Shown: positions 13,247 to 63,861 of the stretch, in pieces
Layout: every line of letters starts with the position of its first letter
How positions within the stretch are numbered: position 1 is the first letter of the stretch
Notes under the pieces: generated by a model
What the model was told of the DNA's origin: nothing
Databases searched by the model: none
Seen by the model: the letters and a program-made list of their open reading frames with translations, nothing else
Made by a program: the position numbers and the translations under genes
Assembly: GCA_030272585.1 (NCBI GenBank)
Contig: BSYQ01000008.1
Coordinates: forward strand, 4,898,001 to 4,962,000
Direction of reading: 5' to 3'
Origin: Bryopsis sp. KO-2023
Lineage: Eukaryota > Chlorophyta > Ulvophyceae > Bryopsidales > Bryopsidaceae
Length of the DNA stretch: 64,000 bases

Positions 13247-16200
13247 GATTACATGTCTGGAAGAATGTAAGATCACCTGTGCAACACAGTTTGCCTGCCT
13301 CCATAATGCTGATTTCTGCATTTTTTGTTTTTTTCAAATATCTGGATCCATTTTCCTCAGAATGGTGTCGAAATTCCGAAAAATTGTGGCCATTCTCAGC
13401 CAGAAATCTGCATCGACCAAAAAAACTCATTTAGCCTTTTTTTCCCCAAATAAAACAATTGTAAGTGTTTCGTTTTCCAATTTTCAAGAAAGGCGGTGCT
13501 ATTTTTAGATTTGGAAAAAGAGATAAATTGCAGCAAGGCAAGGTAGTGAACTGTTTGAAAACAACACAAGATCCAAGCTTGATTTTCTGATGTAGGAAAA
13601 CGAAAACAGGAGTACTCCACTAGTGGTGGTTGGAAGTGTACCCGACGCCCCCACCCACCAGTTGCGACGTAAGCTCTGATGTTGAACGTCCCAAGGTTAT
13701 CGGGTGCCGTGAAATCGACGGTGGCGATCCCACCCTTCGCAATCACAGTTTCAAACAGCGCCGTCGACACGAAGTCCTCCAAAACTCGAACGCTGGCTGA
13801 AGCTGAAGGTGAGGGGAGGCGGCGTGGTCCAGTGGAGACTCTTGAAGTTGAATGGTGTCTATGAGTACCAGCAGGAGGAGCACCACCACCAGCACCACCA
13901 CAACCACCACAATCACCACCAGCACCACCACCACAACCACCACAACCACCATAAGCACCAGCACCAGCACCAGCACCACCAGCACCAGCACCACCAGCAC
14001 CAGCACCAGCACCACCACCACCACCAGCACCGCCACTACCAAGTAACCGCGACTGCATTCACAGACACGTTGAAGGTATACTTGTTTATTTCTTTACTTT
14101 ATATTTTTTTTTATTTTTTATTTTTTAATTTACTTCTTTTATATATATTTGTTTTTCGAAGATGGGTACCATTACCGATGCCCGAAAGCATTTTGTGTTT
14201 TTCCAGAGTGGACACTATCATTCATTACAACAAAAATATAATGAACAGTTAGTTTTTTTTTTCGAACTATTTTTTCTGCCCATGTCCTTTTCTTCCACGA
14301 AACCTCAACGTCACCACCCCCTCCTGTATTCTAGTGCATGTAAATCGAACCCAAAAGAAAAGTATCCTGGAGCAGATTTTTTTCCATTTTCATTTTCATT
14401 TTGCTTTTGCTCTTTTTTGGGGGGGAGGGGGCTGCAGGGAAACTGAAACTATGCATGGTTCAAACAAGATACTACTTGCTTTTCATGCTTTCTGTTGTTT
14501 GGGAGCAAAAAAAGAAGAAATTAACCTACTATTTCATTGGTTTTGTCTGTTTTCTAAGAATAGATAGCTGTGTTCATATTTACAGTCGAGGTCAGAACTC
14601 ACCCAGGTATTTTGATGCACTGTCACATATGTGCTCCTCATATTCACATATTCTTCCTTCGTTTGATCCACGTTTAAGTCATCAAGCTGATTCGGAAAAA
14701 AACAAAAACAAAACCTTCTTTTAAAAAAAAAAAAAAAAAGACTGATTTAAGTGTAATTTAACATACTTTGGAAACAAAAAAAAGCGAACAAAAAAAAATC
14801 CTCTTTTTATAGAAACCGACACAAAGAAAATGAAAAATTAAAATTCGGCACAGCGAAAGTACAGAACTTGGGGGAAAGAATGAACCGACAAAAAAAAAAA
14901 AATAAAAAATCGAGAAGTATTGCTGACCTGGACGGATGGCTCGAACCATGGATCCATTTCCTGTTTTTTCTTGAAGTCGTGGATCAAGGTTTCGATCGCC
15001 TTTGGAGACACCAGGTCGGCCCCCGAATTTGAAAATCCAACGTCAAACTTAGCATCAAGCTCCAGAGCCTTCGCCACATCCTTGAGGGCATAGGGCAGAC
15101 TCTCGAGAATGGCTTTGTCCACAGCAATCACTGTGACTTCGGCCTCGTCGATTTCTGGATCGGTGATATTCACTTGGATGGCCGTGGATTCCCCAGGGGA
15201 AATCGCAAAGTCTTTGGATGCATCCTTTTTAACATCTGGAAACGAGATCTCCACATCCAGGGGCACATCCTGCAGCAATATTAATCCACACGAAATTTTC
15301 ACTAAAAAAATGACCAATTATTATCGACAAAGCCAGTTTGATTTGCTGCACGTATCCAATCCACCCCCCCCCAAAAAAACTGAAATAAAATTAAGAAATT
15401 ACAAAACTAATATAAAAAAATAAGAAATTACAAAACTAATATAAAAAATTAAAAAATTAAAAACCAATATAAAAAAAATAAAAATAAAAATAGAGATTAA
15501 GAATTGATATCCACGCATTGATGATTAGAGAAAATGTCTCACATCAAGCCATTTGAGGGATGCATCACTCAATTTTGACCTCATTTTCACACAGCATGAT
15601 TTTCCCCCAAAAAAACACTTCCCACAATATTTTTACCCCCCCCCCGACAGACCTTTGCGGTGACAATTTCGTAGGTGAGCTTAGTTGAATGGGGCATTGC
15701 CAGATCGAACATGTTCGAAACGGAGACTCCCTTGGGATTGAGAGCGATGCCCTCCGTCTGTCTGGGGACCATCACGCCCACACTCAGCCTGCAGGCCCTT
15801 TCACAATTTTCCCCTAGATCGATCGAGAATTCATGCAAACTGCTGTCATTGATGGGCATAACCTGCAAATACACACACACACACAGAAAAATGTGCTCAA
15901 GAGCCCACAATCGTTTTTTTAATTTTCCACTATTTATATATTTCCAGCGAATTTTGACTTCTGGGGGAATAAATTTTACCACTGGGGCAGTGCCCAGTTT
16001 CATGTAATGATTGAAAAAAAAAGATATAAAAAGTAGTGTTAACAAAATGAACAGTTTCCACCAATTAGTCATTGAATTTTCGTATTTTCAATCCATACCA
16101 TTTGATCGATCCCAGAAGTACTCCCCCAAATCACGAGAGCCTGTGCGTTTCTGTAAGGATTTTCGATCCCGAATTTCAATCGATCTCCGACTTTGTGGGG

Positions 16201-33896: not shown

Positions 33897-36800
33897 CTAG
33901 TAGTTTCTGAACCTCGAAATTGCAGGGTTAAGTTCGAAAGCAACCCAGAAATCATAGCTCTCAGGCCCTTCACTGTCTCCATCGCCCGCTTTCCATTTGT
34001 GACCTCGATACAATACCCCCCCCTTCTCGTTTCTAACAGGCGTTCCATTTGGTTTGATTTCCCACAATGCTCCATGTTCGAAGCAACTGGGCACCACCAG
34101 CTTGGCCTGCTCTGGATCCTCTTCCTTTTCAGAGCTAGTGTTTCGGTACATCGCCCCATCTCCTGTTCCATTCACAAGGCAAGCGTGGATTTCACAGAAC
34201 GTATCATCTGCGTTCAGTGTGCCATGGTCATGAGTTTGAGCATCCACCCCCTTCCCGGCCAACCAGAACTGCATGTGAGCCAATTTCTCGTTGCCTTGGT
34301 AGAACCAGAAACCGCTCATGTTGTAAAACTCGTCATCCGTCTTGAAATATTTCTTGGCATAGTTGTAAAACTTCATCTCTGGACGCTTGCCATCGACAAG
34401 TAAAGTCTCAACATCAAGGTCAGGTGCTCCCCCATCGTGATTTTCGTGAATCTTTGGCACATCTTCCGTATCAGGGTCCCAGTCGCGGATTGGGGTCATC
34501 AGCACCAGCACAGTTTGCACATCAGCCCTCAACATCCTCTTGTCGGAAAACACCCTCGTGTTCACAACAGTGCCAGGTGTAACACAGTTGCGACGCGAAA
34601 TCAGAGTGTCGGGAAGATTCCTCTGTGGTTGCCATGACACTTCACCCTTGATGACTTTGATCATGGTGTCGCTCGGACCACCGGTCAGTTCGAGCCGGCT
34701 GCTTGCATCCATGAAGACGAGTTCAAAAGAGAAGTAATGTGCGTTCAGCAGAAACATGCGTTTGATTTCCCCAGCCGCCAGTTTCTCTGGAAGCTCCACC
34801 TTCACCTCAACAATCTCCGGGGTGATCTTGTTAGGAGGAAGCAAGGATACCTTGAAACCTGGGTCAGGATCAGGCGTAGCGAAGCCATTGTAGTACACAT
34901 TGATCTCCCGGGGGTCCGACTCACAGCTGAGGGTTGCAAAACCCAGCGTACCATTCCGGTCAAAATCTGCAACGACAATTTGGGAAGCGGGTTCTTTGGC
35001 AACATGGGTTTCCATAAAGCGCCCCTCTGACAAATCTAGAGCAGTGTAGTGCATAACCCCACGATCGCGCAAGGCAACGAGAATCTCATCGTTGCCATCT
35101 CTGTCGAAGTCGCAAGCGACGATGTCACGTGCATCTCCTGAGCCGTCATCATCCTCCGTGTCGCTCTTGCTTCGATTGTAAATGGCCACAGGGTGGCACT
35201 CCCATTCGCTCCCGATGAGAGTACCGGTGGATGGCCCACGGCGAGTGTAAACATTCATCACGTTGCCGTGGAAAGGCTCGAGGGTGGCAATGAAGGCGAA
35301 TGGATCGTCACCGTACCGACCGACAGCCACGTTCCCGCATCCTACGAAATCATGCTGAGAACTGGGAGGACGGAGCAAACCTGGGAATAAGTTGTCGCGC
35401 TTGAACTCCTTAGCAATAATGTCGTAGTACAAGTATGTAACGCCTTCCATTGATGCCACCAGAACCGAATCGAGTGGGCCTCCAAAGGCTGCGTCGAACT
35501 TTTTCTTTGTGACCCCATGAATGACATGGAACCAGTCTTTATCGATAGGTACTTCTATCCAGGACTCGGCGTTCTCCAAATCGTCGGGTTGTTGGAACAG
35601 TTTCACCTCTGCACCAGGCTTCGTGTCTCCTTTGCTGCTGACAAGGGGAAAGCCAAGGATCTCCAGTTTCTCTGTTTGAGTGAAGTGACCAAGCTCAAGC
35701 TTGTGCATTCCTGGGGCTTTGCCAACTTTTCGCTTGCACCAGCTCTTGTTCTTTTCCAACACCCCTTTTGGGTTCTCCAGCCAGTAGATTTGTCCTCCGT
35801 CCATGTAGATGGTATCCATCGTGTCTCCATATTCACAACAAATAGCGATATCGTTCCAGCCGTTGCCGTTTATGTCCCCCGCCGCCATTCCAACCGGATT
35901 GTGAACCTCGGAAATCTGAACGTGCTGCCAGTTCGGAGGCTTCTCTCCTTCGTTCGAATGCACTCGCACAAAGCCACTGTTCAAACCCAAAGCCACGATG
36001 TCTGGATATTTATTGTTGGTTAGATCAACAGCTCCAATGCAGCAAGCGTCCCGCACCGCGTCCGTGTCCAACGTTTTAGCATGAAATGTGGGAACTCCAG
36101 ACGAGACGCCGCCCTTGGAAGGAAGACCTCCCGATTCGATGAGTTCGTCAACACATCGCAGAGCCATCGCTGCGCTGGTGAGCGTTGGGTTGCACGCTGC
36201 ATGCGAAGGGAGGATGCCGAGTCCTCCGACGTACAGACCACTGACACCATGCACTTTGCAGTAAGAATCCACAACACTGTCCTTTTTATCCTTCCCCATT
36301 CGGGTAACTCCGGTGATGTGGAGGGTTTTGCCCGGTTCCATCCATTGGGGTTCGCTTCCAGGCAAAAAGCTCCCCAGACAGTTGGCGGCGCGGAGCATAT
36401 CCTTCATCGCCGCCGCAGTTGTTTCTCGATCTTTAATGCTCATTTCAAATTCAAAGGTTGGCTGAGGCATATCGAACATATCCTTGAACTCGGAGGAAAA
36501 CTTGACACGGACTTCTTTGCACGGTTTCATACTTGTGAACCATCAGAGATCAACAATCAAACGAGGGTCGACGTTAGGAGCCAGCTCGCCATATGCGAAC
36601 GCGTCGCGGTGAATTTGGCAATGCCAGGGCCTATCTTTGCTGTATGGGAACCAGCACTGGGGATCACCATCGCCATGCGGTATTGGAATTGGGTCGTGTT
36701 GGGTTCTCAGCTTTTTGTCCTTAGCCACTTCGTCCGGGTACTTTGTACCGATACCCTCAACGATAGACCGCTTCATCACCACTTGACAGAAGGCGAGAGG

Positions 36801-38289
36801 CTGCTCAGTGAGGTAACGTCCAAGCGCGGGGAGGAAATCGCTCTCCTTACCATTCCCGAGACCCGAAGCATGCAGTAGTTGTGCAGAGAGCACGGTTCCA
36901 CAACAGACGATGTAGTGTTTGGCCTTGACTCTGATACGCTCATTCCGCAGCATGTTGTGGATGACCGCGTATTCCACCGACTTTTTGTCATCGTCTTCAT
37001 CCTTCATCACCAGCTTTCGGCACAGATGCTGCTCAAGGATCCGGAATGGACGTGCGGTGTTCACATTCATTGATGGCTCAGCTCCCAAGTGAATGCAGCT
37101 TGGCTTCGCGTGAGGACCCAGAACTGTCGCAGTTGACCCCCATTTTAAAAAGGATTGGTTTAGAGCACGCCTTTTCACGGACAAAGGTAACGCCTGGGGG
37201 CGTTTATCCTCTGGGATGGAATCTTTCTCATACTCTTCCCTAAGCGTTTTCATTACTGTCCGGTGCCGAATTGAATCGTTGAAGGCTTCTTGGGTGACGT
37301 CAAAAAGTACTTCAGCACGCTTGTACAGCTCCTCGCGATCTTCATCAGTCACGAGGTTCTCAAGGTCGCCAAGCTCATCCTGGTGCATTCGTGGACACGC
37401 CGCAGTCCAATGCGTTCCCATGCCTCCAACCTAAACACAGATACGTGCTTACACCAAGGCAATCACAACTGTCGGAAAAAAGCAGTCGATCCACATCAGC
37501 CCATGTTAGGCGTGAATGTCGTTTTCACGGTTTTTCTCTGTTGCAGAACAGACACAGATTTGCGCAGCAAACTAGCCCCCTTTTTTTTCGTGGAGTCGTA
37601 CTTCGTCAAAGAAGCCAACAAACGAACTACATACGACGATGGGAACAAAACATCTGCCCTGCGAGGTATTACCTTGTATGTACATCCAGCTCCACTGAGA
37701 TTTTTGTAGGCGTCCTGGTCTGGGTTCTCATTCCATGTAGAGTAATTTTTTTTATAGTCCTCAGCAGAAACGGTGTAAGCATCTGTCCCAAGCGTGGCCA
37801 CGGGCGCTCTGTTCACAGCGATACTGATTGGGTGGAAGTCTGCCTTGATGATGTTGGCGAAGTAGTTCACATCCTTTTGGAAGTATGCCACGTTCTTGAG
37901 ATGCGCTCCTGGAACAGGAGTGCCGGCGTCCCCGACATCCACCACTGCAAGACAGAGAATGCGTGTCAGAATGAGAATCGTGATCCTGAGCACAGACAAA
38001 TAGATATGCCGGATTCGTTTCCGACAGTTTCGTCGTCGAGTCACATAGACAGAACATCATTTTTTCGGTGTAAAAGGATTGGGTCCTGCAGACTACTACA
38101 CTGGAAGAACGGATTTGGCTCGGTGTTGTCAAGAAACACATGTTTTGCCTTTTCCCTGTACGTACTCAAAATCTTGGCACCAGTGCGATCGAGGAGCTCG
38201 CGCGCGAAAACGGCGCCGATAGGACCACTGCCTATGATGAGAACATCGGTATCAAGCTGCCCCAGTTCTTTGTCCGTGTTTTCCGTCAT
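33897..38289 (-). CDS. Pyranose 2-oxidase / aldos-2-ulose dehydratase fusion, copy 1 (one in-frame TGA)
   Basis: Exons 38289-38166, 37944-37673 and 37430-33897 give 1,309 codons. Residues 1 to about 575 match pyranose 2-oxidase: dinucleotide motif GSGPIG (20-25), VGGMGTHW with the His that carries covalent FAD in fungal enzymes (H139), MPQPTFEFEM, FLPGSEPQWMEPG, and the catalytic pair H503 (LHITG) and N546 (NPTLT). Residues from about 590 hold FG-GAP/propeller repeats (DLTNNKYPDI, DINGNGWNDI, DFDRDGNDEI, DFDRNGT), then two cupin-like regions with a metal-type H-x-H...E-x-H (about 1199-1214); this order resembles fungal aldos-2-ulose dehydratase. In fungi the oxidase makes glucosone and H2O2, and the dehydratase converts glucosone to cortalcerone. 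No signal peptide, so probably intracellular. Codon 428 is TGA where copy 2 has CGA (Arg), so the copy may be inactive or the base an error. The first ATG of an alternative start lies 27 bases upstream. Confidence 0.8.
36543..36545 (-). other. Premature in-frame TGA in fusion copy 1
   Basis: The frame reads RLIVDL-stop-WFTS; the paralog at about 45280 reads RLIVDLRWFTS. The change CGA to TGA is a C-to-T transition at a CpG. The 881 codons after it stay open, so the lesion is recent, polymorphic or a sequencing error. Confidence 0.85.
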
Positions 38290-41415: not shown

Positions 41416-42434
41416 TTACACCCTCGCATTGACAGGGTTAAGTTCAAAAGCAGCCCAGAAGTCATAGCTCTCAGGCCCTTCACTGTCTCCATCGCCCGCT
41501 TTCCATTTGTGACCTCGATACAACACCCCCCCATTATCGTTTCTAACAGGCGTTCCATTTGGTTTCGTTTCCCACAACGCTCCATGTTCGAAGCAACTGG
41601 GCACCACCAGCTTGGCCTGCTCTGGATCCTCTCCCTTTCCAGAGCTAGTGTTGCGGTACATCGCCCCATCTCCTGTTCCATTCACAAGGCAAGCATGGAT
41701 TTCACAGAACGTATCATCTGCGTTCAGTTCGCCATGGTCATGAGTCCGAGCATCCACCCCCTTCCCGGCCAACCAAAACTGCATGTGAGCCAATTTGTCT
41801 TTGCCTTGGTAGAACCAGAAACCGCTCATGTTGTAAAACTCGTCGTCCGTCTCGAAATATTTCTTGGCGTAGTTGTAAAACTTCATCTCTGGACGCTTGC
41901 CATCGACAAGCAACGTCTGAACGTTGAGATCAGGCGCCTCCCCATTGATGGGATTTCGGCCGACCTTTGGCACATCTTCCGTGTCGGGGTTCCAGTTGCG
42001 GATGGGAGTCATAAGCACCAGCACTGTGTCCGAATTAGCCTTCAATGTCCTCGAGTCCGAAAACACCCTCGTGTTCACAACAGTGCCGGGTGTAACACAA
42101 CTGCCACGCTTAATCTCGTCCGGAAGGTCATTCTGTGGTCGCCACGACACTTCACCCTTGATAACTTTGATCATGGTGTCGCTCGGACCACCGGGCAATT
42201 GGATTGTCTCGAATCTGCGGAGGGCTACGAGTTCGAAAGAGAAGCAATGTGCATTCATCAAGAATAAGCGCATGGGCTTCCTAAAGGTTCGTGGAAGTTC
42301 CACCTTCACCTCAACGGTTTCCTCCGGTTGGTCCTTGATGGGAGGGACAATAGATACCTTTATCTCCGCACTGTCAGCTGTGGGGTCAGGGGGAGCGAAG
42401 CTGTTGTAGTACACGTTCACCTCACAAGGTTCCG
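41416..42434 (-). pseudogene. Fusion copy 2, surviving 3' part (cupin end of the dehydratase module)
   Basis: Reading from about 42434 (CEVNVYYNSF) to the stop at 41416, this aligns with the last about 340 residues of copy 1 (EINVYYNGF onwards). It keeps FELVALRRFE, VIKGEVSWRP, THDHGELNADDTFCEIHACL and SCFEHGALWE, including the metal-type H-x-H...E-x-H set. It diverges only at the last residues (NPVNARV against NPAISRFRNY). The open frame runs on upstream into the palindrome array (to 43167), but that sequence is not part of the enzyme. The oxidase C-terminus and most propeller repeats are missing, so the remnant cannot be a full enzyme. Confidence 0.85.
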
Positions 42435-42507
42435 CCTCATAATAGCCCCGAGGCGTGGGCGTTTCCCCGAGGGATCCCCGCGATTTTCGCGTGCCGTCGG
42501 AATGTTT

Positions 42508-42781
42508 GGAGGCTTCGCTTCCACGGAAGCACAAGGCGGAAGCGCGCTTCCAAACCGCTTCCTCGGAAGCGGTGCGCTTCCATATGCTTCCGTGGAAGCG
42601 ACTTCGCTTCCAGCAGCGCTTCCATGGAAGCGGCCTCGCCTCCAGCAGCGCTTCCATGGAAGCGGCCTCGCCTCCAGCAGCGCTTCCATGGAAGCGACCT
42701 CGCCTCCAGCAGCGCTTCCATGGAAGCGACCTCGCCTCCAGCAGCGCTTCCAACCACGCTTCCACTGGAAGCAAGCGTTTC
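42508..42781. repeat. GCTTCC/GGAAGC palindrome array, inner edge
   Basis: Up to five tandem copies of a 32-bp unit built on CGCTTCCATGGAAGCG plus CCTCGCCTCCAGCAG-type spacer (about 42593-42755), with looser copies outside. Each unit is a perfect hairpin stem around CCATGG. The array replaces the enzyme sequence exactly where copy 2 stops matching copy 1. Confidence 0.9.
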
Positions 42782-42789
42782 CATGGTTC

Positions 42790-44890
42790 AATCCATAAAA
42801 CTCCCCAAACCCTCCAAGAGAATAATTTGTATCCCCTGCACGTGTGCACGTGAAGTGGAGTCACGTGTTCAAATGCACATGTCCGACGAAGGCGCAGCAC
42901 TACCAGGTTGGTTGCCCTGCTTCGAATTTGGCTTTGGGACGGGGGCGAGGAATTATTCCGGACAAGACGACACGAGGGTGCGGAGAGGTTGCCACACCCA
43001 AGCGTACCGCGACTGATGAATACTGTCGTAAGTGCATCTATGGAGCCGGAGCCCATTTCGCTCCTGGCGTTGGTGGCGTGGCTGCCGAGCATTTTGGTGG
43101 CCACGTTCCCACCCTGCGAGAATTTGGCTGGGTGCCAGGTGGTATGTCTTGTGTTTTTGGTGTGCAACGTTCAGCCTTCGTTTGATGGTATGTCCTATAC
43201 CTGAACAAGTAGCTCTGGGTTGGAATGAGAATAAAATTTCTTAAAGAACCTCTTGCCGGTGAAAAATAAATAAATGATATGGATTAAAAACAGAGATGGA
43301 GAGAAAGGGCGTGGAAGACATGATTGCGATGCCTGGATTGATCCGGCTTCGCTTGGGGAAATCAGTGTCACGATATCTGGAAGGAAGGTAAACCACAGGA
43401 GCAAGGATGAGAAACTTGTGTGTTGTCCAGTTGAAGTCCTGCTTATATTTTCAGGGGGATGGTTTAATGAAAGCAATCTCAGCCAAGGCCTTGAACTCAG
43501 AGTGAGGTTGACAGTTTCAATAATCCATTGGTCTTGGGCGCTGGATATTGCTGGGCAACAATCTGAACTGGATGGTACATATGCAATGCAGATTGCAATA
43601 CTACAATGTGGACAGGAAGAGCTGAAACGGTCGGAGTCTAAATTCCAGAAAGCTCCACAAATGGCATCACCATCTCTGGCATTGCGGTGGGTGTACTCAA
43701 GTCTGATAGTGAGCTCACAATATTTCAGTATTGTAGTTAATTGTTTGAAAGAATTGATGAATCAGAATTGAATAGAGAAAAGTTTCATAAAAATAAAAAT
43801 CACCATTTGAAAGGACTTACATAAAAAAGGTCTGAAACATTGAAAGACGGCAGAATATAGCATTTTTTTTTAATCGAGTGAATGTCAATGACATCGTAGT
43901 GATAGTGAACCTTTCCACCTGACCATGACAGTGGAATTGCTCCATGGGATTCTAGTGTCCCGTACCATCCTCTCATTTTTTCCAGTTTGTCTCGTGCAAC
44001 ACAGTCATACCAGCGAACGAAAGCCATTTCTTTTTTTTCTCCTTCTACGTGTATCGTGAATAGTAGCCTTAATTGAGCATACCAGTGGACTTCATCTTCA
44101 CCCCGAATAATCACGTTATCGAACCTGGGTCGACCATAAAACATGGGTGTTGCACGCACTGTCTCGATAGGAAAATCTCCTTCTGCAGCTTCTACCACAA
44201 GGGCCAGGTGCTTAGTGGTTCGTATTGTCGCAGGTACCTCTTTTTTCCCCCGAAAACGAAGGATCCCCTCCCCTTCCTCTCCAATTATCGCGAAGGAAAA
44301 AAACGCCCGAAGCGAAAAAAAGGTTTCAGGAAAAACAGGTGAGAAAAAAATAGCGTGTGCTCGAAAAAAATCGGCAGAAACACGGGGGAAGAATCTATTT
44401 TGGGCAGTAGGGAATAATAAAAATAGAAGAATAGGTGGTGAGCTATGAATATTTTATTTCTATTATGTTTAATAAGTTTTTTTCTTTTTTCTGGGGGTGG
44501 TTTGTTTGAATGCTCTCAGAAACTCTTCCGAATTCTGCATTGGACTTTTTGCTTCTCTTTTCTTTTCCATCTTCTAATAACAAAATAAAGGACTTGGATA
44601 TACATGTTGGAACATACATGTGCAGCATGAATGTGACTGCACTTCCAGAAGTGGTCCACAGAAATTCTGTGTTTGCTGCACACTAACAGTTTCCTGGAAA
44701 ATACAAACACAAACACAAAACACAGGAGAACTGCCTATTCATGAATGCTTGGTAGTGTGAGTCAGTTTGGGACTAGTCCTAAAAGAGTGTGCAAGGGACG
44801 CTCTTTGGCGGCGACCCTGGGCTTTTTCGGGTTCGACTCCCAGTGCTCATTAATAACATCAATTAGACGCAAGAAAATTCTTGCAATTTT
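42790..44890. other. Foreign segment between two palindrome arrays in fusion copy 2
   Basis: This sequence has no counterpart in copy 1. It contains a possible transposon-protein fragment (43800-44198) and no complete gene. Together with its bordering arrays it occupies the place of the oxidase C-terminus and the propeller repeats. Confidence 0.6.
43800..44198 (-). pseudogene. Possible transposon-associated protein fragment
   Basis: A 132-residue open frame with a protein-like composition: FYGRPRFDNVIIRGEDEVHW, then an LLFTIHVEGEKKEMAFVRWY stretch, GWYGTLES, and IHSIKKKCYILPSFNVSDLF. The pattern 'AFVRWY ... IHSI ... ILPSF ... FYVSPF' is reminiscent of the C-terminal part of large transposon-encoded proteins (CACTA/Plavaka-like) in fungi and algae. 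That resemblance is from memory and weak. No start context or neighbouring exons were found, so it is called a fragment. Confidence 0.35.
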
Positions 44891-45200
44891 CCCCCAGCAC
44901 GCCCAGTTCCGGCTCGCTTCCAATGGAAGCGAAACTGGAATCCATCGCTTCCACTGGAAACGATCGCTTCCACTGGAAACGATCGCTTCCATTCTCGCCT
45001 CCATCGTGGTTCCATCTTCCGCTTCCGTGGAAGTGAGTGTGGTAGCGACCGCTTCCATGGAAGCAGTCTTGGAAGCGAGCTGTGGGCGTTACAATCGCAC
45101 GCTTCCACGATCGCTTCCGCGGAAGCGATCGGTGCCACACTCATTTCCATGGAAGCGGAAGATGGAACCACGATGGAAGCGACGTTGGAAGCGTGCAAAC
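44890..45200. repeat. GCTTCC/GGAAGC palindrome array, outer edge
   Basis: Repeated hairpins of the forms CGCTTCCACTGGAAACGAT and CGCTTCCATGGAAGCGG, less regular than the inner array. The oxidase frame of copy 2 runs to about 45215 (KFSTKYKD) and then enters this array. Confidence 0.85.
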
Positions 45201-45214
45201 ATTCCGACGGCGCA

Positions 45215-48200
45215 GTATCCTTGTACTTGGTGGAAAACTTGACACGGACATCTTTGTCAGGTTTCACGCTTGTGAACCATCGGAGATCAACGATCAAACG
45301 AGGGTCGACGTTAGGAGCCAGCACGCCATATGCGAACGCGTCGCGGTGAATTTGGCAATGCCAGGGCCTCTTTTCGCTGTATGGGAACCAGCACTTGGGA
45401 TTTTGGCAGGTTTTTACCAGGTGTGTTGGGATCGTAAGCAATTCCCCAGGGGCTGGTTAACAGGGATTCTACGGCCTTTTTACAAGGGTAAGGGTAATCG
45501 TGCTGTCCCTGAATTTTACAGGCCCATAGTCCTGACGTCTCCTCTATATAAGATTTTTTCTTATATATTATTGGGTCGCATGGAGGTTGTAGATTGTCGT
45601 GTCGGTTTACGTTCAGATTTGCAGGCGGGATTTCATGTAGATTTTTCTCCAAATGATCATCTTTTTCTTTTTTGGTTGTTTTGGTTTCATTCTAAGGACC
45701 AGCGTCTGCCCTTTTTTATTTTATGGTTGGATTTTCGAAAGGCGTACGATTCGGTGCAACATAGGCGTTTGTGGGAGACTCTTTATTGTTTTCGTTTTTC
45801 AAAAGCCTATGTGGAGATGTGGCAGTATTTATACGAACATTCTTCTTTCGTTATAAAGGCATCAGTAGGGACTTCGGTACCGATACCTCTTCGGGCCGGG
45901 GTTTTACAAGGTTGTCCAGCAAGTCCTTCTTTATATAATCTGTATCAGGAGCCACTCCAAGATTTATTGAACTCGAGGATTGCTGCTCCTTCCTTGGGTG
46001 GGGAGACCATTCCATGTATGATGTTTGCAGATGATACGGGGATACCAGGACATTGTTGGTCTGGGGTAAAGGAAGTGTTGCAGGTTTTGATTGAATGGGA
46101 ACAATATTCGGGAATTGGTTTAAATTTTTCCAAAACGATTCTGATGGTTTTTTTTCAGCAGCTTATGTCTTCTTCTTTTCATTTTCATGAGCATTCTATA
46201 CCAATTTCAGAGGACCATACATATTTAGGAATTCGGTTATCATCAAGTTCTCATCATCCTTTTTTGTCGCATATTGATTATGTTTTAGCACAGTGTCGGA
46301 AAGCAATGGGGTTTGTTTTGTCGCGTCTTTTTGCTCTGAAAATTGAGGATCCAAAAGTAGCATACAATCTTTTTAAGGTGTATGTTTTGGGCAGTATAGG
46401 ATATGGGTTTCCTATTTGGGGTCCATTCCTAACAGTTTCTCAGTGGCGTTTGTTGGAAGCAATTCATCTCCAGTTTATGAGAAGTATCCTCCGTTTGCCT
46501 CGATATACGCCAAAGGAGGTTCTGTACGGGGAATTAGGGTGTTATCCATTAGAATTAGCACTTTGGTCGCAATTGTGCCGATATTGGAACAAGTTGGTTG
46601 GGTTATCAGTTGATCGATTGCATGGAAGATTGTTTTGTTGGGGTTTTGATCAATATCACGCATCTCGATCTTCTTGGTTTGGGCGTATTTTGGGTTTTTT
46701 CAGACGGTTTTGGCCGGAGAAGATATTTTCTTCTACGACTTTGGTGGACATTTCGGAATTTCAGCGTCGTTATAAAGCTATGCATGCTGAACATGTTTTC
46801 GGTTCATCTGCATCTCGAGTTATATCTTGGTATCGGCATATTAAGTTTTCCCTCAGATTTGAACGGTATTTGACAACTTTAAAACCAACTTCTCTTCGGG
46901 TTTTCTTTACTCGTTTTCGTTGTGGTATTCATTTCTTGGAAGTGGAAGTGGGACGATATAATGGTGTACCAAGGGAAAACAGGATTTGTCGGTTGTGTCG
47001 GTCCGCGGTGGAAGATGAACGGCATTTTCTTTTTGAATGTCCTTTTTATTCTTCCTTTCGTTCTTTGCATTCAGATGTTTTTCGATGGGCTAATCCCAAG
47101 GATCTTTTTAGTAGGGTGCCATCGGGCAAATTAGCTTTAGTTATCAGCAAAATGGCTTCAATACGTTCAGCAGGTTTACAATCCTAAGGTTTTTGTTTTG
47201 TTTTTGTTTTTTTTTTTTGTTTTTGTTTTTCTCTTTCTTTTCTTTCCTTTTTGTCTTTGTTCCAGCATCATAGAGGGTGATGGCTCTCTTTTGCTGTGGG
47301 TTGTAATTATGATTATGACTACGGAACCAGCACTGGGGATCACCATCACCATGTGGTATTGGAATTGGGTCTTCAGGGTGTTCATCGTTGTGCTGTGCCA
47401 CTTCGTCCGGGTAGTCTTCCCTGATACCCTCAACAATGGACCGCTTCATCACCACTTGACAGAAGGCGAGAGGCTGCTCAGTGAGGTAACGTCCAAGCGC
47501 GGGGAGGAAATCGTCATCCTCACCATTTCCGAGACCCGAAGCATGCAATAGTTGTGCAGAGAGCACGGTTCCACAACAGACGATGTAGTGTTTGGCCTTG
47601 ACTCTGATACGCTCATTCCGCAGCATGTTGTGGATGACTGCGTATTCCACCGACTTTTTGTCATCGTCTTCATCCTTCATCACCAGCTTTCGGCACAGAT
47701 GCTGCTCAAGGATCCGGAATGGACGTGCGGTGTTCACGTTCAATGATGGCCCAGCCCCCAAGTGAATGCAGCTTGGCTTCGCGTGAGGACCCAGAATGGT
47801 CGCAGTCGATCCCCAGTTCAAGAAGGATTGGTCACGAGTACGCCTTTTCACGGACAAAGGTAACGCCTGGGGGCGATAAGCCTTTGGGATGTCTTCACGC
47901 TCATACTCTTCCGCAAGCGTGTCCCTTACTGTCCGATGTCGAATTGAAGTGTCGAAGGCTTCTTGGGTGACATCGTAGAGTACTTCCGCACGCTTGTACA
48001 GCTTTTCACGGTCTTCATCGGACACGAGGTGCTCAAGGTCGCCAAGCTCACCCTGGTGCATTCGTGGACACGCCGCTGTCCAGTGCGTACCCATGCCTCC
48101 AACCTAAACACAGATACATGCTTACACCAAGGCAATCACAACAATAGAAAAAGAAAGAGAACTGTCGAGCGGCGCAGGCCCAAGGCACCTTGGGAGTGAA

Positions 48201-48903
48201 AATCAATTCAATAGTTTTGGAACAACCATAGACTCATGGTGAAGCTGCTTTCCTTTTACAGCATCACCAAGGTATCTCGATTTTTCTTCGGGCTGTGTGA
48301 AAATAGCGAACAAACTCCCGCATGTGACGATGATGTAGAAGAGGAACGGTAAACATCCAACTGAGCGGGTTTTACCTTGTACGTGCAACCAGCTCCACTT
48401 ATATTTTTGTAGGGGTCCTGATCTGGGTTCTCATTCCAGGTTGAGTATCCATTATCATAGGCTTCAGGAGGAACAGTGTAGGCATCTGTCCCAAGTGTGA
48501 CCTCGCGCGATCTGTTCACAGCAATACTGGTTGGGTGGAAGTCTGCCTTGATGATGTTGGCGAAGTAGTTCACGTCCTTTTGGAAGTATGCCACGTTCTT
48601 GAGATGCGCTCCTGGAACAGGAGTGCCGGCGTCCCCGACATCCACCACTGCAAGACAGAGAATGCCCATCAGAATGACAGATAGATATGTCGATTCGTTT
48701 CCGACAGTTTCGTCGTAAAGTGACAAAGATAGAACAGAGTTGTATCGCGAGAGAATGACCTCTGCCTCCCTATACATACTCAAAATCTTGGCATCGGTTT
48801 TGTCCAGGAGCTCGCGCGCGAAAACGGCGCCCACAGGTCCACTGCCTATGATGAGAACATCGGTATCAAGCTGCCCCAGCTCTTGGTCCGTGTTTTCCGT
48901 CAT
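45215..48903 (-). pseudogene. Fusion copy 2, 5' part (pyranose-oxidase N-terminal region, split by a LINE)
   Basis: Exons 48903-48780, 48647-48376 and 48103-47323 plus 45395-45215 have the same splice sites and phases as copy 1. They encode MTENTDQELGQLDTDVLIIG, GSGPVG, VDVGDAGTPVPG, VGGMGTHW with the flavin-linking His, and HRDAFAYG...RLIVDLRWFTS (Arg where copy 1 has a stop). The third exon is interrupted by a LINE in the opposite orientation, between exact copies of GGAACCAGCACT. Without the LINE the frame would be open to KFSTKYKD, where the palindrome array begins and the catalytic His/Asn segment is lost. Two independent lesions make this a pseudogene. Confidence 0.88.
45396..47322 (+). 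mobile_element. 5'-truncated LINE (non-LTR retrotransposon) inserted in fusion copy 2
   Basis: Flanked by an exact 12-bp duplication GGAACCAGCACT (45384-45395 and 47323-47334); copy 1 has the empty site. One uninterrupted frame, 45397-47187 (596 residues), carries reverse-transcriptase motifs in order: RPFYKGKGN, YRPIVLTS, LDFRKAYDSV, GVLQGCPASPSLYN, MMFADDTG, a thumb region, and a C-terminal zinc-type CRLCRSAVEDERHFLFECPF. There is no start codon near the junction, no endonuclease and no ORF1, so it is a 5'-truncated copy. The 3' UTR is T-rich and ends GATTATGACTAC, not poly(A). The intact frame and perfect duplication indicate a young insertion. Confidence 0.9.
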
Positions 48904-51842: not shown

Positions 51843-52140
51843 GGCCTCCCCCACAATGTTTAATCGTGCCCTCACGATTGACTTGAAAACATATACTCCC
51901 ACATCTTTTCTGGAACTACAAAATTCTCAGACTTTTTCCTTGCACTCTGTTTTGCCTATTGCAGAAAATATTGCCCACTGACATCATACCATCCCTCACA
52001 CAGTTTGTAAACACAGACCCATAAAAACCCTTTGCCCTAGTTTTCTTTCCAATTCAGTCCACGGTTCAAAAAAAAACTACTCCACAATACCATTGTCCAC
52101 TCAAGCATCACTCATACAAAAAAACAGTTTTGGAATTGCC

Positions 52141-53730
52141 TCACTTCAATGTTTTTATTTGCCAATCGGCAAGCAACTTACCCTGGACTCGAACCGCTCC
52201 CTTCTCTCCTACCCAGTCAACCTCGTATGGCCCTCTCCAGTTTTCCTCCACCTTGCTCCTGTGTTTTGGATCCGTCAAGACCATGACGCAATCTCCTTGC
52301 TTGATCTGATCTGTGCCTCCATAAGCACCATTTCTTGCCCACTGGTCCCTTTTTTCGCCCATGACGTCCAACGCATGATCCCGAATCAATCCCAAACAGC
52401 CCAATTCTTTCCTCACCTCCATCACTGGAACTACAACTCCACTTTCTGCCATCCAGCAAACTCCTCCTGGATCCCACAGACTGATTCGAAATTGCCCACT
52501 GCTTGTGTCGTTTTGCTGAGGCCCTTTGTGCGCATCCTCCTTCATTCTTGGTCGTAGCATGCACGCATTTCCATCCCATTTGATTTCAAAAGGTTCAATT
52601 GTCCTTTGAAGAACAGAAGCGTCCTTTCCCAGTCCAGGATCCCAAAGTCGCGAACCACACCCTTCAAGGACGTCACCATCGACTGACTTCACTGTCATTC
52701 CTTCACCTTCCTTGCTCCTGTGAATCAATTCCTCGAACGCACTTCGATTCTCTTCACAATGGACGTTAGGAAACATCCGTGGAATTTCACGGAACCCATT
52801 CTCCCCAGTATTGCACTGCGCGCAACGGGCTTCGCTCTGTCTTTGGTTAAATTTCGATAGGTCGTCATCAGCTTCAGCAATGACCCTCTCAGCTGCACTC
52901 CTATCTTTTTTGTCGTGGGCATCGCCAGAACAGGGTATGGCATTGAACTTTTCCTCAGGAACATCGTTTAGCTCAACAGCGATCCTGTCCTTGGGCTCAT
53001 CCTTTCCCAAATGCTCCTTTAGCTCAACAACACAGCCAACCTCTTCCCTGTCGCTGTTGTCATTGTTGCCGTCCACAGGCTCGACTACGGAACTTCCATT
53101 TCCCCCCAAAACAACGCGCTGCTCAGAGAGTCCCACTGCACTTTGATTACCCCTCTTTTCCTCAGTATCTTCATCGTCAAACTCCGATACCATACTATCA
53201 CCCTCAACCATTTCCTTCTTACTTTCAAGCATATTGTTGCCAACGCCATCAGTTTCAGCCGTTTGCTGGTGCTCTGTCGATTCGGCAGGTATGGTTTCGA
53301 CAGGGTTTCCATGCTCCACAGGAAAAACACTCGACTCTGAGATCACCCTTTCCATCTCGGTTATCTCTTTCTTTTCAGCACCATGCGATTGAATGTTGAC
53401 AACCTCTGTTCCTGTTTCAGTCTCGTTCGGAATAGAGCATATAATAGCCCGTGGAGCCATTGCTACATTTTGCCTCGCCTTCCGATCAATCACGCCCTTG
53501 ATAAACTCAGCGAACAGGTCGTTAAGTTCTTGATTGGCAGCAAAGGCATCTGCTTCGGTTAGAATCAGTTCATCAGCATCGTCACAAGCATCGATATGCT
53601 CTTGGAAAAACTCCCCCCAACCATTCACTAGCTCTTCTAGCGAGCAATCCAACCGTTCGGCGGCTGAGCGCAATGCCTCAAAGATAATTGCTTCAATTTC
53701 TGATGCCTCGTCCATGCTGTCCTTGCTCAC
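52141..53730 (-). CDS. Retroelement ORF with integrase-tail-like C-terminus
   Basis: A single 529-residue frame fills most of the internal region of the outer LTR element. The N-terminal about 120 residues are acidic and helical (LRSAAERLDCSLEELVNGW). The middle is a low-complexity Glu/Asp/Ser/Asn region, followed by a short Cys-containing stretch (CAQCNTGENGF). The last 50 residues (GDCVMVLTDPKHRSKVEENW, then RGPYEVDWVG and QIKTLK) resemble the small beta-barrel that follows integrase in Ty3-like polyproteins (GD-x-V-x-V ... W-x-GPY-x-V). No protease, reverse transcriptase or integrase core is present. It may be a chimeric gag-like protein that keeps the element mobile in trans, or a captured host sequence. 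Absence of stops suggests recent selection or youth. Confidence 0.6.
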   Translation of the reverse strand: MSKDSMDEASEIEAIIFEALRSAAERLDCSLEELVNGWGEFFQEHIDACDDADELILTEADAFAANQELNDLFAEFIKGVIDRKARQNVAMAPRAIICSIPNETETGTEVVNIQSHGAEKKEITEMERVISESSVFPVEHGNPVETIPAESTEHQQTAETDGVGNNMLESKKEMVEGDSMVSEFDDEDTEEKRGNQSAVGLSEQRVVLGGNGSSVVEPVDGNNDNSDREEVGCVVELKEHLGKDEPKDRIAVELNDVPEEKFNAIPCSGDAHDKKDRSAAERVIAEADDDLSKFNQRQSEARCAQCNTGENGFREIPRMFPNVHCEENRSAFEELIHRSKEGEGMTVKSVDGDVLEGCGSRLWDPGLGKDASVLQRTIEPFEIKWDGNACMLRPRMKEDAHKGPQQNDTSSGQFRISLWDPGGVCWMAESGVVVPVMEVRKELGCLGLIRDHALDVMGEKRDQWARNGAYGGTDQIKQGDCVMVLTDPKHRSKVEENWRGPYEVDWVGEKGAVRVQGKLLADWQIKTLK

Positions 53731-54000
53731 GACTGAGTTGGAGCACTAGCCGAGCAATTGCACGTCCATGAGGGAGAGAGAGCGTGACTGAGTAGGAGGA
53801 GGAGGGTAGTCCAGGGAGCTATCTGAACACCATAGGCAACACACCCAATCACCGACGCAAAAAAAAAAACAAGTATCAATTGTGTCGTCGATGCACTGCC
53901 TGCCAATGATATGCCCCAAAATGCAAATATAAAAACACCGGTCCCAATTTCCGGTCTGTCCGGTTTAACACTTCACGACACTGTTTCGACCCAGCTTGTC

Positions 54001-54650
54001 TGTAACGACTCTGCCCTGCAGATCGCTTTTTCTGCTTCAATACACTGAAGACTGCGACCCTGCCGGTCTGCCAGTCTGAACTGCCGTTCTATTGAACGAC
54101 CATGGGAGAGACACTTGAACCTAGCAAGGTTCAAGGGCGAGATCAGGTTCCAAACTAAGGTTAGGTTAAGTTACAAGAATGTCCAAGCCCCAACAACTTA
54201 TACCGTTTCTTCCAACCCTGATCCAAACTGATCCTAAGCCATAACATCAGTCTGCATCAGTGTTGCAGACCATCAAACTACCAAGTTCCTTTCAGTCCCC
54301 TTTCATGACATGCAGCCTCAGACACCTTGCACGGTACTGCGGTCCTGAGTCTGCCACCTAAGACCTTCTAGAACCTTGTGCCTGCCAGCTCTGCAGCCCA
54401 CGTTCTGCAACGCTGCCAGCACCTGTCTGCCATCAGCAACCCTGTCAGCCCGACTACTCTGCCACTTCGTCAGTCTGCCAATCTGCTGACTACCAGTCCT
54501 TTAGTCTGCAGGTCTGAAGGACCTGAACCATTCCTGCTTCTGCAGAATCATAGCAGTCAACCTGCAGCCTAATCTGTCAGCCCAATCACTGCCAGTTCTG
54601 CAAGCCTGCAGGTCTGCCTGAATCGCCTTTGATTCTGCCGAATCACTACA
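54001..54650 (-). repeat. 3' LTR of the nested element
   Basis: Ends TGTAAC...TACA in + orientation; 650 bp, matching 62555-63204 throughout by eye. Confidence 0.92.
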
Positions 54651-54662
54651 TTCCTCCCCATC
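54651..54662 (-). promoter_or_regulatory. Polypurine tract of the nested element
   Basis: GATGGGGAGGAA on the - strand directly precedes the 3' LTR, the standard site for plus-strand priming. Confidence 0.75.
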
Positions 54663-57600
54663 TAGTTGGCAGTAGTCCCTTACTGCCCTAAGAGACTTAT
54701 AACAACCTTGTCCCTTGGATTTCAAATACCCAAAGGAACTTCTGCCTCAAAGTTCAGTTTGAAAAGTTGCTATCCCATCTTGCCAACTGCCAAACACCTT
54801 TTGGAAGGACTAACCAACTTCTTTTCGAAAAAATTTGCAAAATAAAGTATATGCTTCTTTCTCAACATTCTGATGCATACCTCTGAATTGCCTAGAAAAC
54901 TGCTCAGAAAAATCCCAATAACACAAATAAGAAAACCGAACGAACTTCTCTTTCGGAATTGTAATGTGCTACTGAACAAAATTCAATTCCTTTCTGCAGC
55001 CTGTGAACTCAATAGATTTTATTAGAGAATTCAACAGAAAAATAGCAAAAATCTGCTGCAGCTTTTAGAGTCTCAGCAATTCACCTTTCTGCTCAAATAT
55101 CATTTTCCAATGATGAAAGAAAGACACCAAATATTTTGCAAGTACCAAAATTTCTGAAACTTCATGTTGTCCCATAATTTCAAAAGCAACATTTGCATAT
55201 TGAAAACCTGCAAACTGCCACTACCACAATCTGCAAATTCTCTGCAACTACTGCCACAGTCTGCAACCCAGCAAACTGGTACTGCCACAATCCAGAACTC
55301 TACAAACTGTTGCTGCCAAAATTTGCAACTCAGCAAAATACCACTTTCACAATATGCAAACTGTCTTGGAGTAAAGAAGAAGGTTGAATGACTGAAGTTC
55401 TGTCTCCCAAAAGAAGTTTCCAACCTTTTGAAAACCAAGAGATCACCAGTCACTCCAGCAGCTCCTCAGAGTGGAAACTCCTTGATGCATAGTGAGCTGC
55501 CACATGTCTCCACCAAGTTAGCCTTCCGCATAGCAATGAAAAGCGAGCGATAGGATCTTGCAACAACAAGTCTCCAGATGTTCTTCAATGAAGAAGTGAG
55601 CTTGCTCCTCAATTTTTCCCTGAAGCATGCTCCCTTCTGTTCCTGCTTCCTCTCTCCTGAGTCAAGAATGTGCAGAGTACCTACAGATTGATTGCATTAA
55701 TTGTTCCCGAGTTCTTCTATGCCTTCTCCGGTTTTCCCATATATGAATCTATACAAACCAGAGTATATGAAAACCCAGAAATTCCACTTGGCCTATCCTG
55801 ACTTAATGAAATCAACCCTTTCTTTCAACCAACAAGACTTCACTCAGTGACATTTCCTTTTTCTTTTGAACTCTGCTGCTCAAATAAATATCCTACAACT
55901 GAGTGCTGAAAGAATCCATACCAATGTACCCTCTGAAATTCAGTAACCTCAAGTGAGCACCAATCTAACTGATTCAATCAATGGTCATGCAAACTTCTGT
56001 AAATTCCAAACCAAATGAATCCACATCAAAATATGTGTCGTGAACCAGAATATTTCAGTCCACCAAAAACATCCTTGCTAAGACTACAAATGTTCCATTA
56101 TGCATCGTCCCAAAGTAGTGAACTATGCATAGTTCCTTAATCCACTCTGCAAGAATAGTGGAACTGAAAACACATATTTACTGACCACCGAGATATTGCA
56201 AACACTATCCATGAATTCCCGTCAGCTCTGAAAGAGTATCACTAACAACCTCTTCCTTTCCTTAGAAACCTTGATGAAAACATGTGTCTCTTTGCAACAC
56301 CTACTGAAATAAATGCAATTTTGGAAAAACAAAAACGAAACGCATCGGTTCAACCGAGGCCCCCTCCCCATCTGAAATGGAGCTTGTCCTCAAGCAAAAC
56401 CATGCAACCATGCAAAACCATATCACTGTCCCAGCTACAGAAAGTTGAGCTGTTCGGAGCAGCCAAATGACCCCAAACAACTGAACAAACTACTTCAGAA
56501 AACAAGCCTGAAAAACTGAAGGCCTGAATTTGCTCTGCCAAAGTCAGAAAAATCTGCTGCCCCAGATTGTAACCAAATGTTCAGTTCTCAACCTTTCTGA
56601 TATAGTTTGTCCACACAAATATACACCAATCATACCACCAAAGATCAAGGCTATTTCTGTTCCATTGACAAGAAAAGAAATAGAAAATAAAGAAAACACA
56701 GAAATTTTTGCAGCCCTGCAAAGTGTTCCTGCAAACAGGTTCTGCACCTGCAATGTACCAACTGCCCATAACAAATTTCCAGATCTCCTGCAAAAATTTT
56801 CACTGTCCCTTTTGTTTCTTTGTATGTAAAGCTGAACCTGACCATCGAATGTCATAACCTTCAGCTCCTGATCTTTGACACCATGCTATCCATGCATCAA
56901 GTTCAAACACTAGCCCATTGTTTACTAGTACATCGTCATGAAATAAAAGAGTTGCCAACTCATGCTACTTCATGTCTAACCACTGCAAACAAACTCAAGA
57001 AGAAATCCATCTGAAAATCTGAATCCTGAATGAAAGTCCGAGAAAACCTTTCTTTTCTTTTCTCTAACTCTGCTGATTTCCACTGACTCAAACACAAAAT
57101 CAGAGATAGATCTTCAGAAATTGAAAATCCTTTTGCTTTTCCTTCTGAGCTTTATATTTCTCACAATAATATTTGAACTACCGCTGGTCCATGTATATTT
57201 AGACTTCTCAAAGAAATCAGAAATATAGACTTCACCCCTGATTTTCTTTCTTGATCTCCTGAAAATCTGCAACTCAAACCAGATCTAATGTATCGAATCA
57301 AAATAAAGCATTTTCCAGATTTCAGTCACTGCCAATCAAGTCCAAAAGTGACTGCAACAATACCAACTTCTGTCACTGAAAATTGCTATCTCTGATGCCC
57401 TTTGGCACAATCATAAGTTTTCTAGGGAACCCTGAATGTCCCTCAGAAATGTTTCAGCCCAACAACCAGTCTATGGACCTGTAAAATAGAGATCAGAGTC
57501 CTCCTTTCGAGTACAAAACTGCAACTCCATCTGCAGTCTGAAATAGAGCCCAAATCTCTCATTTTCCAGCCTTTTAAATGTTGTCATTCTGCCACTGATT

Positions 57601-58225
57601 TGCCAAACCAATTTCCATATTCAAAACTGAAATGAAAGCTCTTATGTAGGTGGTTGTATCTGCCCTTTTTATCAGCCATACTCAGGTGGCACCAAATACT
57701 AACACCACGAAGATAAATCTCACAATGCATCAAATATTTTTCTCTAAACCAATACTCTGATCCTCTTTCCTCTAGAGCTGAGGTCTCTTCACACTCTGCA
57801 ACTCCTAGAAAAGATCATTGTATTTTCCTTCAACTCAACTACATTCCTTCATCAATCTGAAAAGGTGATATCAGATGCAGTTCACATGTTACTGCATCCA
57901 CTGAAAATTTCTCTAGCCAATTTCAGAACCCCAGCTAGCTTCCAGTTTATAGGCAAGATGTAGATATTCCAATTCTACATCCCTACCTATCGATATACGA
58001 TTTTCTCCACGTCACGAAATCACCGACAATAAAAATTCAGTTCCTTCTCAAAACATCAATCGCACGCCGTACACAATCTGCCTGGCATGTATTCTCATTT
58101 CAGCCGCACGCCGCACACGGCCTGCCTGGCATGTACACTTCACTTCCATAGAACGAAGTTTGGACTATGTCCTTGAAAGTAGACTTCATTAGGTCTACCC
58201 AGCCCATAACTTCTCGCTCACCAAA

Positions 58226-58648: not shown

Positions 58649-58650
58649 TT
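58432..58650. repeat. 54-bp tandem repeat (four copies)
   Basis: Unit with the core CCAATTCATCCACTGACCTA, preserved at a multiple of three so that both strands stay open. Confidence 0.9.
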
Positions 58651-62541: not shown

Positions 62542-62553
62542 GCTCCGAAACCA
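62542..62553 (-). promoter_or_regulatory. Primer-binding site of the nested element
   Basis: TGGTTTCGGAGC on the - strand, one base from the end of the 5' LTR; it would pair with the 3' end of a tRNA ending GCTCCGAAACCA. Confidence 0.7.
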
Positions 62554-62554
62554 A

Positions 62555-63204: not shown

Positions 63205-63491
63205 TTGTCTTTCCGTCCTCAAAACGCTTGATGCGCGTCACTGGTCGACAACACTTCTGCACATAGAGCAATCAAGTCGTGTCCTGTTTTTCCAGCACAG
63301 TGTGGTGCGAAAGCTTTTCCTCGAAGATATCGAAGATGAAGACTGCTGACGGTTTGCTGGTTGACCACGTCGTCGTTGCGTCGTCCAAAGGTATCACAAA
63401 TATGGTCGAGTCGAGAAAAAATAAAGAAGAATATTCAATCGAAAAGGCCGCAAGAGCAAAGCAACTCCTGCTCCCCTTCTTGGCCACCAAC

Positions 63492-63856: not shown

Positions 63857-63861
63857 TCATG

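What the first reader, a model, noticed from the sequence alone, without database searches (positions are those of the whole stretch)
33897..38289. One-polypeptide pyranose 2-oxidase + aldos-2-ulose dehydratase fusion
The reading frame joins a complete pyranose-oxidase module (GSGPIG, flavin-linking GTHW, His/Asn catalytic pair) to a propeller-plus-cupin module that looks like fungal aldos-2-ulose dehydratase. In fungi these are separate enzymes of consecutive steps (glucose to glucosone + H2O2, then glucosone to cortalcerone). A physical fusion in an intron-rich, apparently non-fungal eukaryote would be a Rosetta-stone link. It suggests channelling of a reactive dicarbonyl toward an antimicrobial pyranone, or processing of 1,5-anhydrofructose. 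The second, decayed copy has both ends, so the fusion predates the duplication.
Basis: partly seen in the sequence, partly recalled or inferred. Interest (0 to 1): 0.92.

Follow-up and report, generated by a model that had tools for sequence, protein, structure and literature searches.

The report
Broken algal two-step sugar-enzyme fusion gene
A green seaweed carries a gene that welds a sugar-oxidising enzyme to the enzyme of the next step; a marine worm has the same fused protein uninterrupted, while both seaweed copies look broken, so the fusion is real but probably not working here.

Summary
The fusion is real. One minus-strand gene (33897-38289, three exons) encodes pyranose 2-oxidase followed by both aldos-2-ulose dehydratase (AUDH) modules, propeller and cupin; the module junction lies inside one exon. 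The C half matches AUDH specifically (4a7k, E 4e-78). The same architecture occurs uninterrupted in the annelid Dimorphilus gyrociliatus (1388 aa) and one unnamed assembly (1387 aa); the three form one clade for both the oxidase and the propeller. The host is a siphonous green alga, probably Bryopsis.

Copy 1 also lacks one of four near-universal propeller histidines. Copy 2 has lost the propeller and oxidase C-terminus and holds a reverse transcriptase frame. Searches found no other AUDH copy in the 91-Mb assembly: a decaying locus, probably not a working algal pathway.

New context: in bacteria the propeller gene lies near pyranose oxidase plus an IolE-like TIM barrel (10 of 43 strong loci), another GMC oxidase plus that TIM barrel (8), or a remotely AUDH-like cupin (25, of which 5 with GH31). 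This fits sequential action on 2-keto-sugars. Substrate and product are untested.

The parts
38166..38289 (-). Copy 1 exon 1: start codon, FAD-binding GSGPIG (38215-38232)
   Evidence: splice sites; conserved columns
37673..37944 (-). Copy 1 exon 2: oxidase N-terminal region
33897..37430 (-). Copy 1 exon 3: rest of oxidase, linker, AUDH propeller, AUDH cupin, stop
37404..37418 (-). GTHWT, flavin-linking motif (His139)
   Evidence: the role of this His in fungal enzymes is recalled
36543..36545 (-). In-frame TGA, codon 428; Arg in copy 2 and in relatives
36162..36509 (-). GMC_oxred_C domain with His503 (36318-36320) and Asn546 (36189-36191)
34887..36050 (-). AUDH beta-propeller region (about residues 593-980)
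35127..35129 (-). Arg900, where 46 of 47 propeller rows have His (4a7k His337)
33927..34805 (-). AUDH cupin, with the HxH...E.H motif (34185-34232)
48373..48903 (-). Copy 2: region of exons 1 and 2
47324..48103 (-). Copy 2: oxidase part matching residues 133-393
45217..45402 (-). Copy 2: oxidase part matching residues 388-449, with Arg at the codon-428 position
41422..42438 (-). Copy 2: cupin part (76% identical to copy 1)
45046..47184 (+). Open frame with reverse transcriptase domain (LINE-like by my reading) lying between the oxidase pieces of copy 2
   Evidence: RVT_1, E 6.3e-19

Best explanation
This is an algal member, now decaying, of a rare family of three-module fusion enzymes: pyranose 2-oxidase, then AUDH beta-propeller, then AUDH cupin. 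In intact members the oxidase most likely oxidises C2 of an aldopyranose (glucose, or 1,5-anhydroglucitol), releasing H2O2; the metal-dependent propeller removes water from the 2-keto-sugar; the cupin rearranges the enolone to a pyranone of the cortalcerone or microthecin type. Keeping the steps on one chain would limit escape of a reactive dicarbonyl and its cleavage by the co-produced H2O2. In this alga the tandem copies look disabled: copy 1 by a nonsense codon in the oxidase and loss of a probable propeller site histidine, copy 2 by loss of the propeller and oxidase C-terminus. Shown: architecture, homology, one clade for the fusions, the lesions, no further copy found. Inferred: chemistry, substrate, channelling, the role of the four histidines, pseudogene status.
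For: AUDH-specific domains and 4a7k match; oxidase match; fold model matches AUDH and pyranose oxidase; uninterrupted fusions P0001 and P0002 with the same module order; fusion clade 100/100 for the oxidase and 98/89 for the propeller. TGA. Conserved-column recount: algal propeller 12 substitutions and 1 gap in 49 columns, against P0001 2 of 50, P0002 1 of 50. Genome searches: 2 cupins and 1 propeller, all at this locus. Bacterial neighbours. PDB titles: AUDH solved with its active-site metal depleted and with the intermediate ascopyrone M. Fungal pathway and glucosone cleavage by H2O2: PMC7910265, passages.
Against: Copy 1 is open for 1308 of 1309 codons apart from one stop; dN/dS between copies is 0.40 over 674 codons, so constraint acted for much of their history; 4 of 5 comparable divergent oxidase residues are shared by copy 2, so the divergence is not only decay of copy 1. 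Recounted without copy 2 as reference, the cupin has 7 of 59 conserved columns changed, more than P0002 (2 of 61), close to P0001 (5 of 64) and fewer than P0008 (11 of 70). No transcript or activity data.
Confidence: 0.72

Rival explanations
1. The algal gene still works: the TGA is an assembly error, a null allele, edited in the RNA or read through, and the fusion is a live enzyme.
For: Rest of the frame is open; dN/dS 0.40; cupin motif kept.
Against: Arg900 replaces a histidine found in 46 of 47 rows; highest number of substitutions in conserved propeller columns among the five rows tested; copy 2 also broken.
Confidence: 0.2
2. After the stop the 881-codon frame is used on its own as an AUDH-like protein, or only the cupin is kept, with a changed function.
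For: Open frame of 881 codons; both copies keep a cupin above the Pfam cut-off.
Against: No transcript data; the propeller site histidine is lost; cupin columns changed 7 of 59.
Confidence: 0.12
3. The family's main substrate is 1,5-anhydroglucitol or 1,5-anhydrofructose (clearance of an anhydro-sugar), not glucose.
For: 5 of 25 bacterial propeller-cupin loci have a GH31 gene nearby; for four of these Pfam confirms GH31, and a profile of the four has its longest PDB stretch with alpha-1,4-glucan lyase 2x2h. 1,5-Anhydrofructose as a GH31 side product and precursor of ascopyrone and microthecin: PMC12441222, passages. Oxidation of 1,5-anhydroglucitol by pyranose oxidase is recalled.
Against: 2x2h was only the second hit by E-value after maltase-glucoamylase and eighth in the single-sequence search; in the algal genome that GH31 query found only weak matches (4 places; best 32% identity), one being an 896-aa glucosidase-II-like frame (label recalled).
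Confidence: 0.3
4. The Dimorphilus sequence is contamination and the fusion is algal only.
For: The source of P0001 is unnamed; the flanks of P0002 were not seen.
Against: P0002 lies on a 2,241,898-base contig; the genome's authors removed contigs similar to bacteria, algae and fungi (PMC7854359, passage); only 42-45% identity to the alga.
Confidence: 0.05

Closest known systems
Fungal pyranose 2-oxidase (e.g. PDB 2f6c, 4mif, 1tt0)
   Same: FAD motif, THWT motif, catalytic His/Asn, GMC fold; sister group of the fusion clade in the tree (86/93)
   Different: Stand-alone enzyme in the solved structures; the algal copy has an in-frame stop
Fungal AUDH / pyranosone dehydratase (Phanerochaete chrysosporium, PDB 4a7k, 4a7y, 4a7z)
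   Same: Propeller followed by cupin, aligned over 4a7k residues 72-732
   Different: No oxidase in front; 4a7k has about 170 further C-terminal residues that have no counterpart here (a lectin-like domain, as recalled)
Fusion proteins P0002 (Dimorphilus gyrociliatus) and P0001 (unnamed)
   Same: Same three modules in the same order, 42-45% identity over 99% of the query
   Different: Uninterrupted; all four propeller histidines kept
Bacterial propeller gene neighbourhoods (e.g. Streptomyces, Saccharothrix, Nocardiopsis)
   Same: Same kinds of parts encoded near each other
   Different: Separate genes; where pyranose oxidase is present the partner is a xylose-isomerase-like TIM barrel, not the cupin; the cupins are only remotely similar to the eukaryotic one

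Membership tests
Pyranose 2-oxidase (GMC) | FAD-binding GSGPIG and flavin-linking THWT | tested here: met
Pyranose 2-oxidase (GMC) | Catalytic His and Asn | tested here: met
   His503, Asn546; they lie after the stop. Roles recalled; one search lists an H548N mutant structure
Pyranose 2-oxidase (GMC) | Uninterrupted coding frame | tested here: not met
   TGA at codon 428
Pyranose 2-oxidase (GMC) | C2 oxidation of sugars with O2 | not testable with these tools
   needs the protein
AUDH | AUDH beta-propeller and AUDH cupin domains above the curated cut-offs | tested here: met
AUDH | The four near-universal propeller histidines | tested here: not met
   3 of 4 kept; Arg900
AUDH | Cupin HxH...E.H motif | tested here: met
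AUDH | C-terminal region beyond 4a7k residue 732 | tested here: not met
   alignment ends at 732 of 900 and the algal protein ends soon after; also absent from P0001, P0002 and P0008 by length
AUDH | Dehydration and isomerisation of 2-keto-sugars | not testable with these tools
   needs the protein
P2Ox-AUDH fusion family (P0001, P0002, this gene) | Same module order, corresponding junction, one clade for oxidase and for propeller | tested here: met
   (no tree was made for the cupin)

The most novel reading that the evidence does not exclude
A self-contained one-polypeptide pathway (C2 oxidation, dehydration and isomerisation of a hexose to a reactive pyranone) arose once by joining a bacterial-type pyranose oxidase to AUDH, moved between distant eukaryotes, is kept by an animal (Dimorphilus) and is being lost from a siphonous green alga.
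Probability: 0.4. Interest if true: 0.8.

Novelty: new variant of a known kind. Interest (0 to 1): 0.6.

Why it matters
It gives a Rosetta-stone link between two enzymes known to act in sequence in fungi, puts the pair in an animal and a green alga, and together with the bacterial gene neighbourhoods makes the function of the AUDH propeller testable in laboratory strains. I found no paper on such a fusion in the held full-text library (searches; I saw listings and some passages, and for only 15 of 1,462 papers); papers outside that library were not searched.

Tried and rejected
Generic FG-GAP/cupin match: rejected by AUDH-specific domains and 4a7k. Two neighbouring genes run together: rejected, because the junction lies in one exon and two other proteins share it. 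A short intron removing the TGA: considered by eye on the sequence; any GT..AG stretch spanning it would delete part of the VDLRWF block that relatives keep. Bacterial contamination: rejected; the gene has introns and contig C8 also carries light-harvesting genes. Viral source: one IMG/VR scan with the C half found no relative. First GTDB scan with the whole C half found none; the propeller-only alignment found 60 loci. Plasmid search with the oxidase piece gave 5 records of distant GMC oxidoreductases. The third protein search gave only P0008 and did not return fungal AUDH, so these searches are not exhaustive. My first conserved-column count was mended: the cupin result '0 of 53' came from having copy 2 among the reference rows, and the propeller '14 of 48' held an end artefact.

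Full report
What is there. A gene on the minus strand from 38289 to 33897 has three exons (38166-38289, 37673-37944, 33897-37430) with GT-AG introns (my notebook entry has two exon ends off by one). The model has 1309 codons. The N half (about residues 1-556) is a pyranose 2-oxidase: GSGPIG, GTHWT, GMC_oxred_N and GMC_oxred_C; its best PDB matches are pyranose oxidases. The C half carries the AUDH beta-propeller and AUDH cupin domains far above their cut-offs and aligns with Phanerochaete AUDH 4a7k over chain residues 72-732 (E 4.1e-78). An AlphaFold2 model of exon 3 with the stop read as Arg (mean pLDDT 71.5, pTM 0.47, cupin region weak) matches AUDH first and pyranose oxidase next in the PDB. 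The relative placing of the modules in that model is not reliable.

Codon 428 (36543-36545) is TGA, in the conserved VDLRWF block. Copy 2 and the aligned relatives have arginine there. The first 427 codons lack the catalytic His/Asn piece; the 881 codons after the stop carry it together with the AUDH modules. The frame is not intact in this assembly.

The organism. The window is C8:4898001-4962000 of a 91,088,769-base, 28-contig assembly. The genome has 107 chlorophyll a/b-binding matches, five of them on C8. For one such protein the top PDB matches are 9vfj LHCI-2 and 9jzr Lhcb-d (organisms not shown), then the siphonaxanthin LHCII Bry-Lhcb1 (8hlv, E 2.5e-91). That points to a siphonous green alga (Bryopsidales). 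Bryopsis sp. KO-2023 (GCA_030272585.1, named in PMC12509668, passages) is my guess; its assembly size is recalled and was not checked.

Relatives. One search gave 3 hits among 6842 scored candidates, 2 of them fusions: P0002 (Dimorphilus gyrociliatus, an annelid by the title of PMC7854359) and P0001 (unnamed). One search gave 6 hits among 7994 scored, with the same 2 fusions; the other hits of the two calls are P0003, P0004, P0006 and P0007 (fungal oxidases by their source names) and P0005 (unnamed). P0001 and P0002 are 66% identical and 42-45% identical to the alga. P0002 lies on a 2.24-Mb contig of a genome whose authors removed contigs similar to bacteria, algae and fungi (passage). One search gave P0008 (743 aa), with the AUDH half only. 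These searches rest on shared words and are not exhaustive.

Trees. In the oxidase tree (21 rows) the three fusions form one clade (100/100), next to the 4 fungal rows (86/93). In the propeller tree (55 rows) they again form one clade (98/89), then P0008 (98/87), then the fungal enzyme (98/92), inside a clade of 32 rows (100/99) whose 27 bacterial rows include 24 from loci with a cupin and 3 from loci with pyranose oxidase. The algal, fungal and P0008 branches are long and the program warned of long branches, so positions beyond the fusion clade are less certain. One fusion event followed by transfer between distant eukaryotes is the simplest reading; direction unknown.

Bacterial context. With the two plasmid loci I scanned 62: 43 have a strong propeller (over 250 bits), 16 a weaker one, 3 gave no hit. 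Of the 43: 10 have pyranose oxidase plus a xylose-isomerase-like TIM barrel (IolE-like is my label; Pfam says PF01261), 8 another GMC oxidase plus that TIM barrel, 25 a cupin (15 of these also a FAD_binding_4/BBE oxidase, 5 a GH31 gene, 5 neither). None of the 16 weaker loci has any of these partners. Caveats: the cupin model was seeded with one bacterial cupin (L008); a model of eukaryotic cupins alone finds no bacterial one; Pfam gives the AUDH cupin for 7 of 10 frames tested, all below the cut-off, two of them only at E 0.06-0.08. So the propeller gene usually lies near an enzyme that could make a keto-sugar; that these enzymes do so here is inferred from their families.

State of the algal locus. 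Among columns conserved in the other rows (all, or all but one where more than 33 rows count), recounted: propeller, alga 12 substitutions and 1 gap of 49, P0001 2 of 50, P0002 1 of 50, P0008 4 and 2 gaps of 51, 4a7k 4 and 5 gaps of 50; cupin, alga 7 of 59, P0001 5 of 64, P0002 2 of 61, P0008 11 of 70, 4a7k 44 and 5 gaps of 108. Oxidase: alga 10 of 94 including the stop, P0001 1 of 95, P0002 1 of 95, P0003 15 of 108, P0004 2 of 96, P0007 8 of 102; P0005 and P0006 were left out of that count. The bases differ between rows because each row is tested against the others without the alga. So the excess is clear for the propeller, present for the oxidase against most rows, and absent for the cupin. 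Of four near-universal propeller histidines (4a7k 155, 215, 295, 337) the fourth is Arg900 here and His in 46 of 47 rows. That His155 was proposed as catalytic base and that the propeller binds zinc is recalled from the structure paper, which I did not read; PDB titles confirm only an active-site metal and bound ascopyrone M.

Copy 2 (41422-48903) keeps oxidase N-terminal pieces and the cupin; 565 of 691 aligned residues are identical, exon 2 not counted. It lacks the oxidase C-terminus and the propeller and contains a reverse transcriptase frame and GCTTCCATGG-type repeats. dN/dS between the copies is 0.40 over 674 codons. Of five divergent oxidase positions that can be compared, four are shared by copy 2 and only the stop is private to copy 1. 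Family searches of the genome found 2 AUDH cupins and 1 AUDH propeller, all here, and 0 of 14 control genomes held either; 10 GMC C-terminal matches were found.

How it works, most likely. Intact members would oxidise C2 of a pyranose with O2, pass the 2-keto-sugar to the propeller for metal-aided dehydration, then to the cupin for isomerisation, as fungal pyranose oxidase and pyranosone dehydratase turn glucose to cortalcerone (PMC7910265, passages). The same passages report that H2O2 cleaves glucosone without enzyme, a reason to keep the dehydratase close. Glucose versus 1,5-anhydroglucitol is open (PMC12441222, passages). For this alga I put about 0.7 on no active full-length fusion being made.

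Verdict. A real, new domain architecture of known enzymes, backed by uninterrupted homologues, in an organism where it is probably broken.

Noticed in passing
L018, L022-L024, L028, L029, L032, L048, L052, L056: Actinobacterial loci with pyranose oxidase, a PF01261 TIM barrel and an AUDH-type propeller close together.
   Followed up: partly
L017, L019, L020, L027, L042: Propeller and cupin genes near a GH31 gene of about 1010-1074 aa (Pfam for four; L042 by profile only); possible anhydrofructose pathway.
   Followed up: partly
L009-L016: Propeller near another GMC oxidase and the TIM barrel; in Persicobacter (L009) also a glycogen-debranching-like and a GH63/MGH1-like gene.
   Followed up: partly
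window 42544-42752, 44934-45193: Arrays of palindrome-like GCTTCCATGGAAGC repeats inside copy 2.
   Followed up: no
window 14841-15317 (-): Exon-like frame with a weak, sub-threshold alpha-2-macroglobulin bait-region match.
   Followed up: no
window 7086-7532 (+): Cys-rich frame with a weak, sub-threshold PLAC8 match.
   Followed up: no
window 52000-64000: Stretch with strong negative GC skew (-0.18 to -0.33), a 534-aa open frame without Pfam match and a 54-bp tandem repeat at 58431-58651.
   Followed up: no
P0005: Unnamed protein: pyranose oxidase N part read into a PF01261 TIM barrel across what looks like a frameshift; groups with L018.
   Followed up: partly
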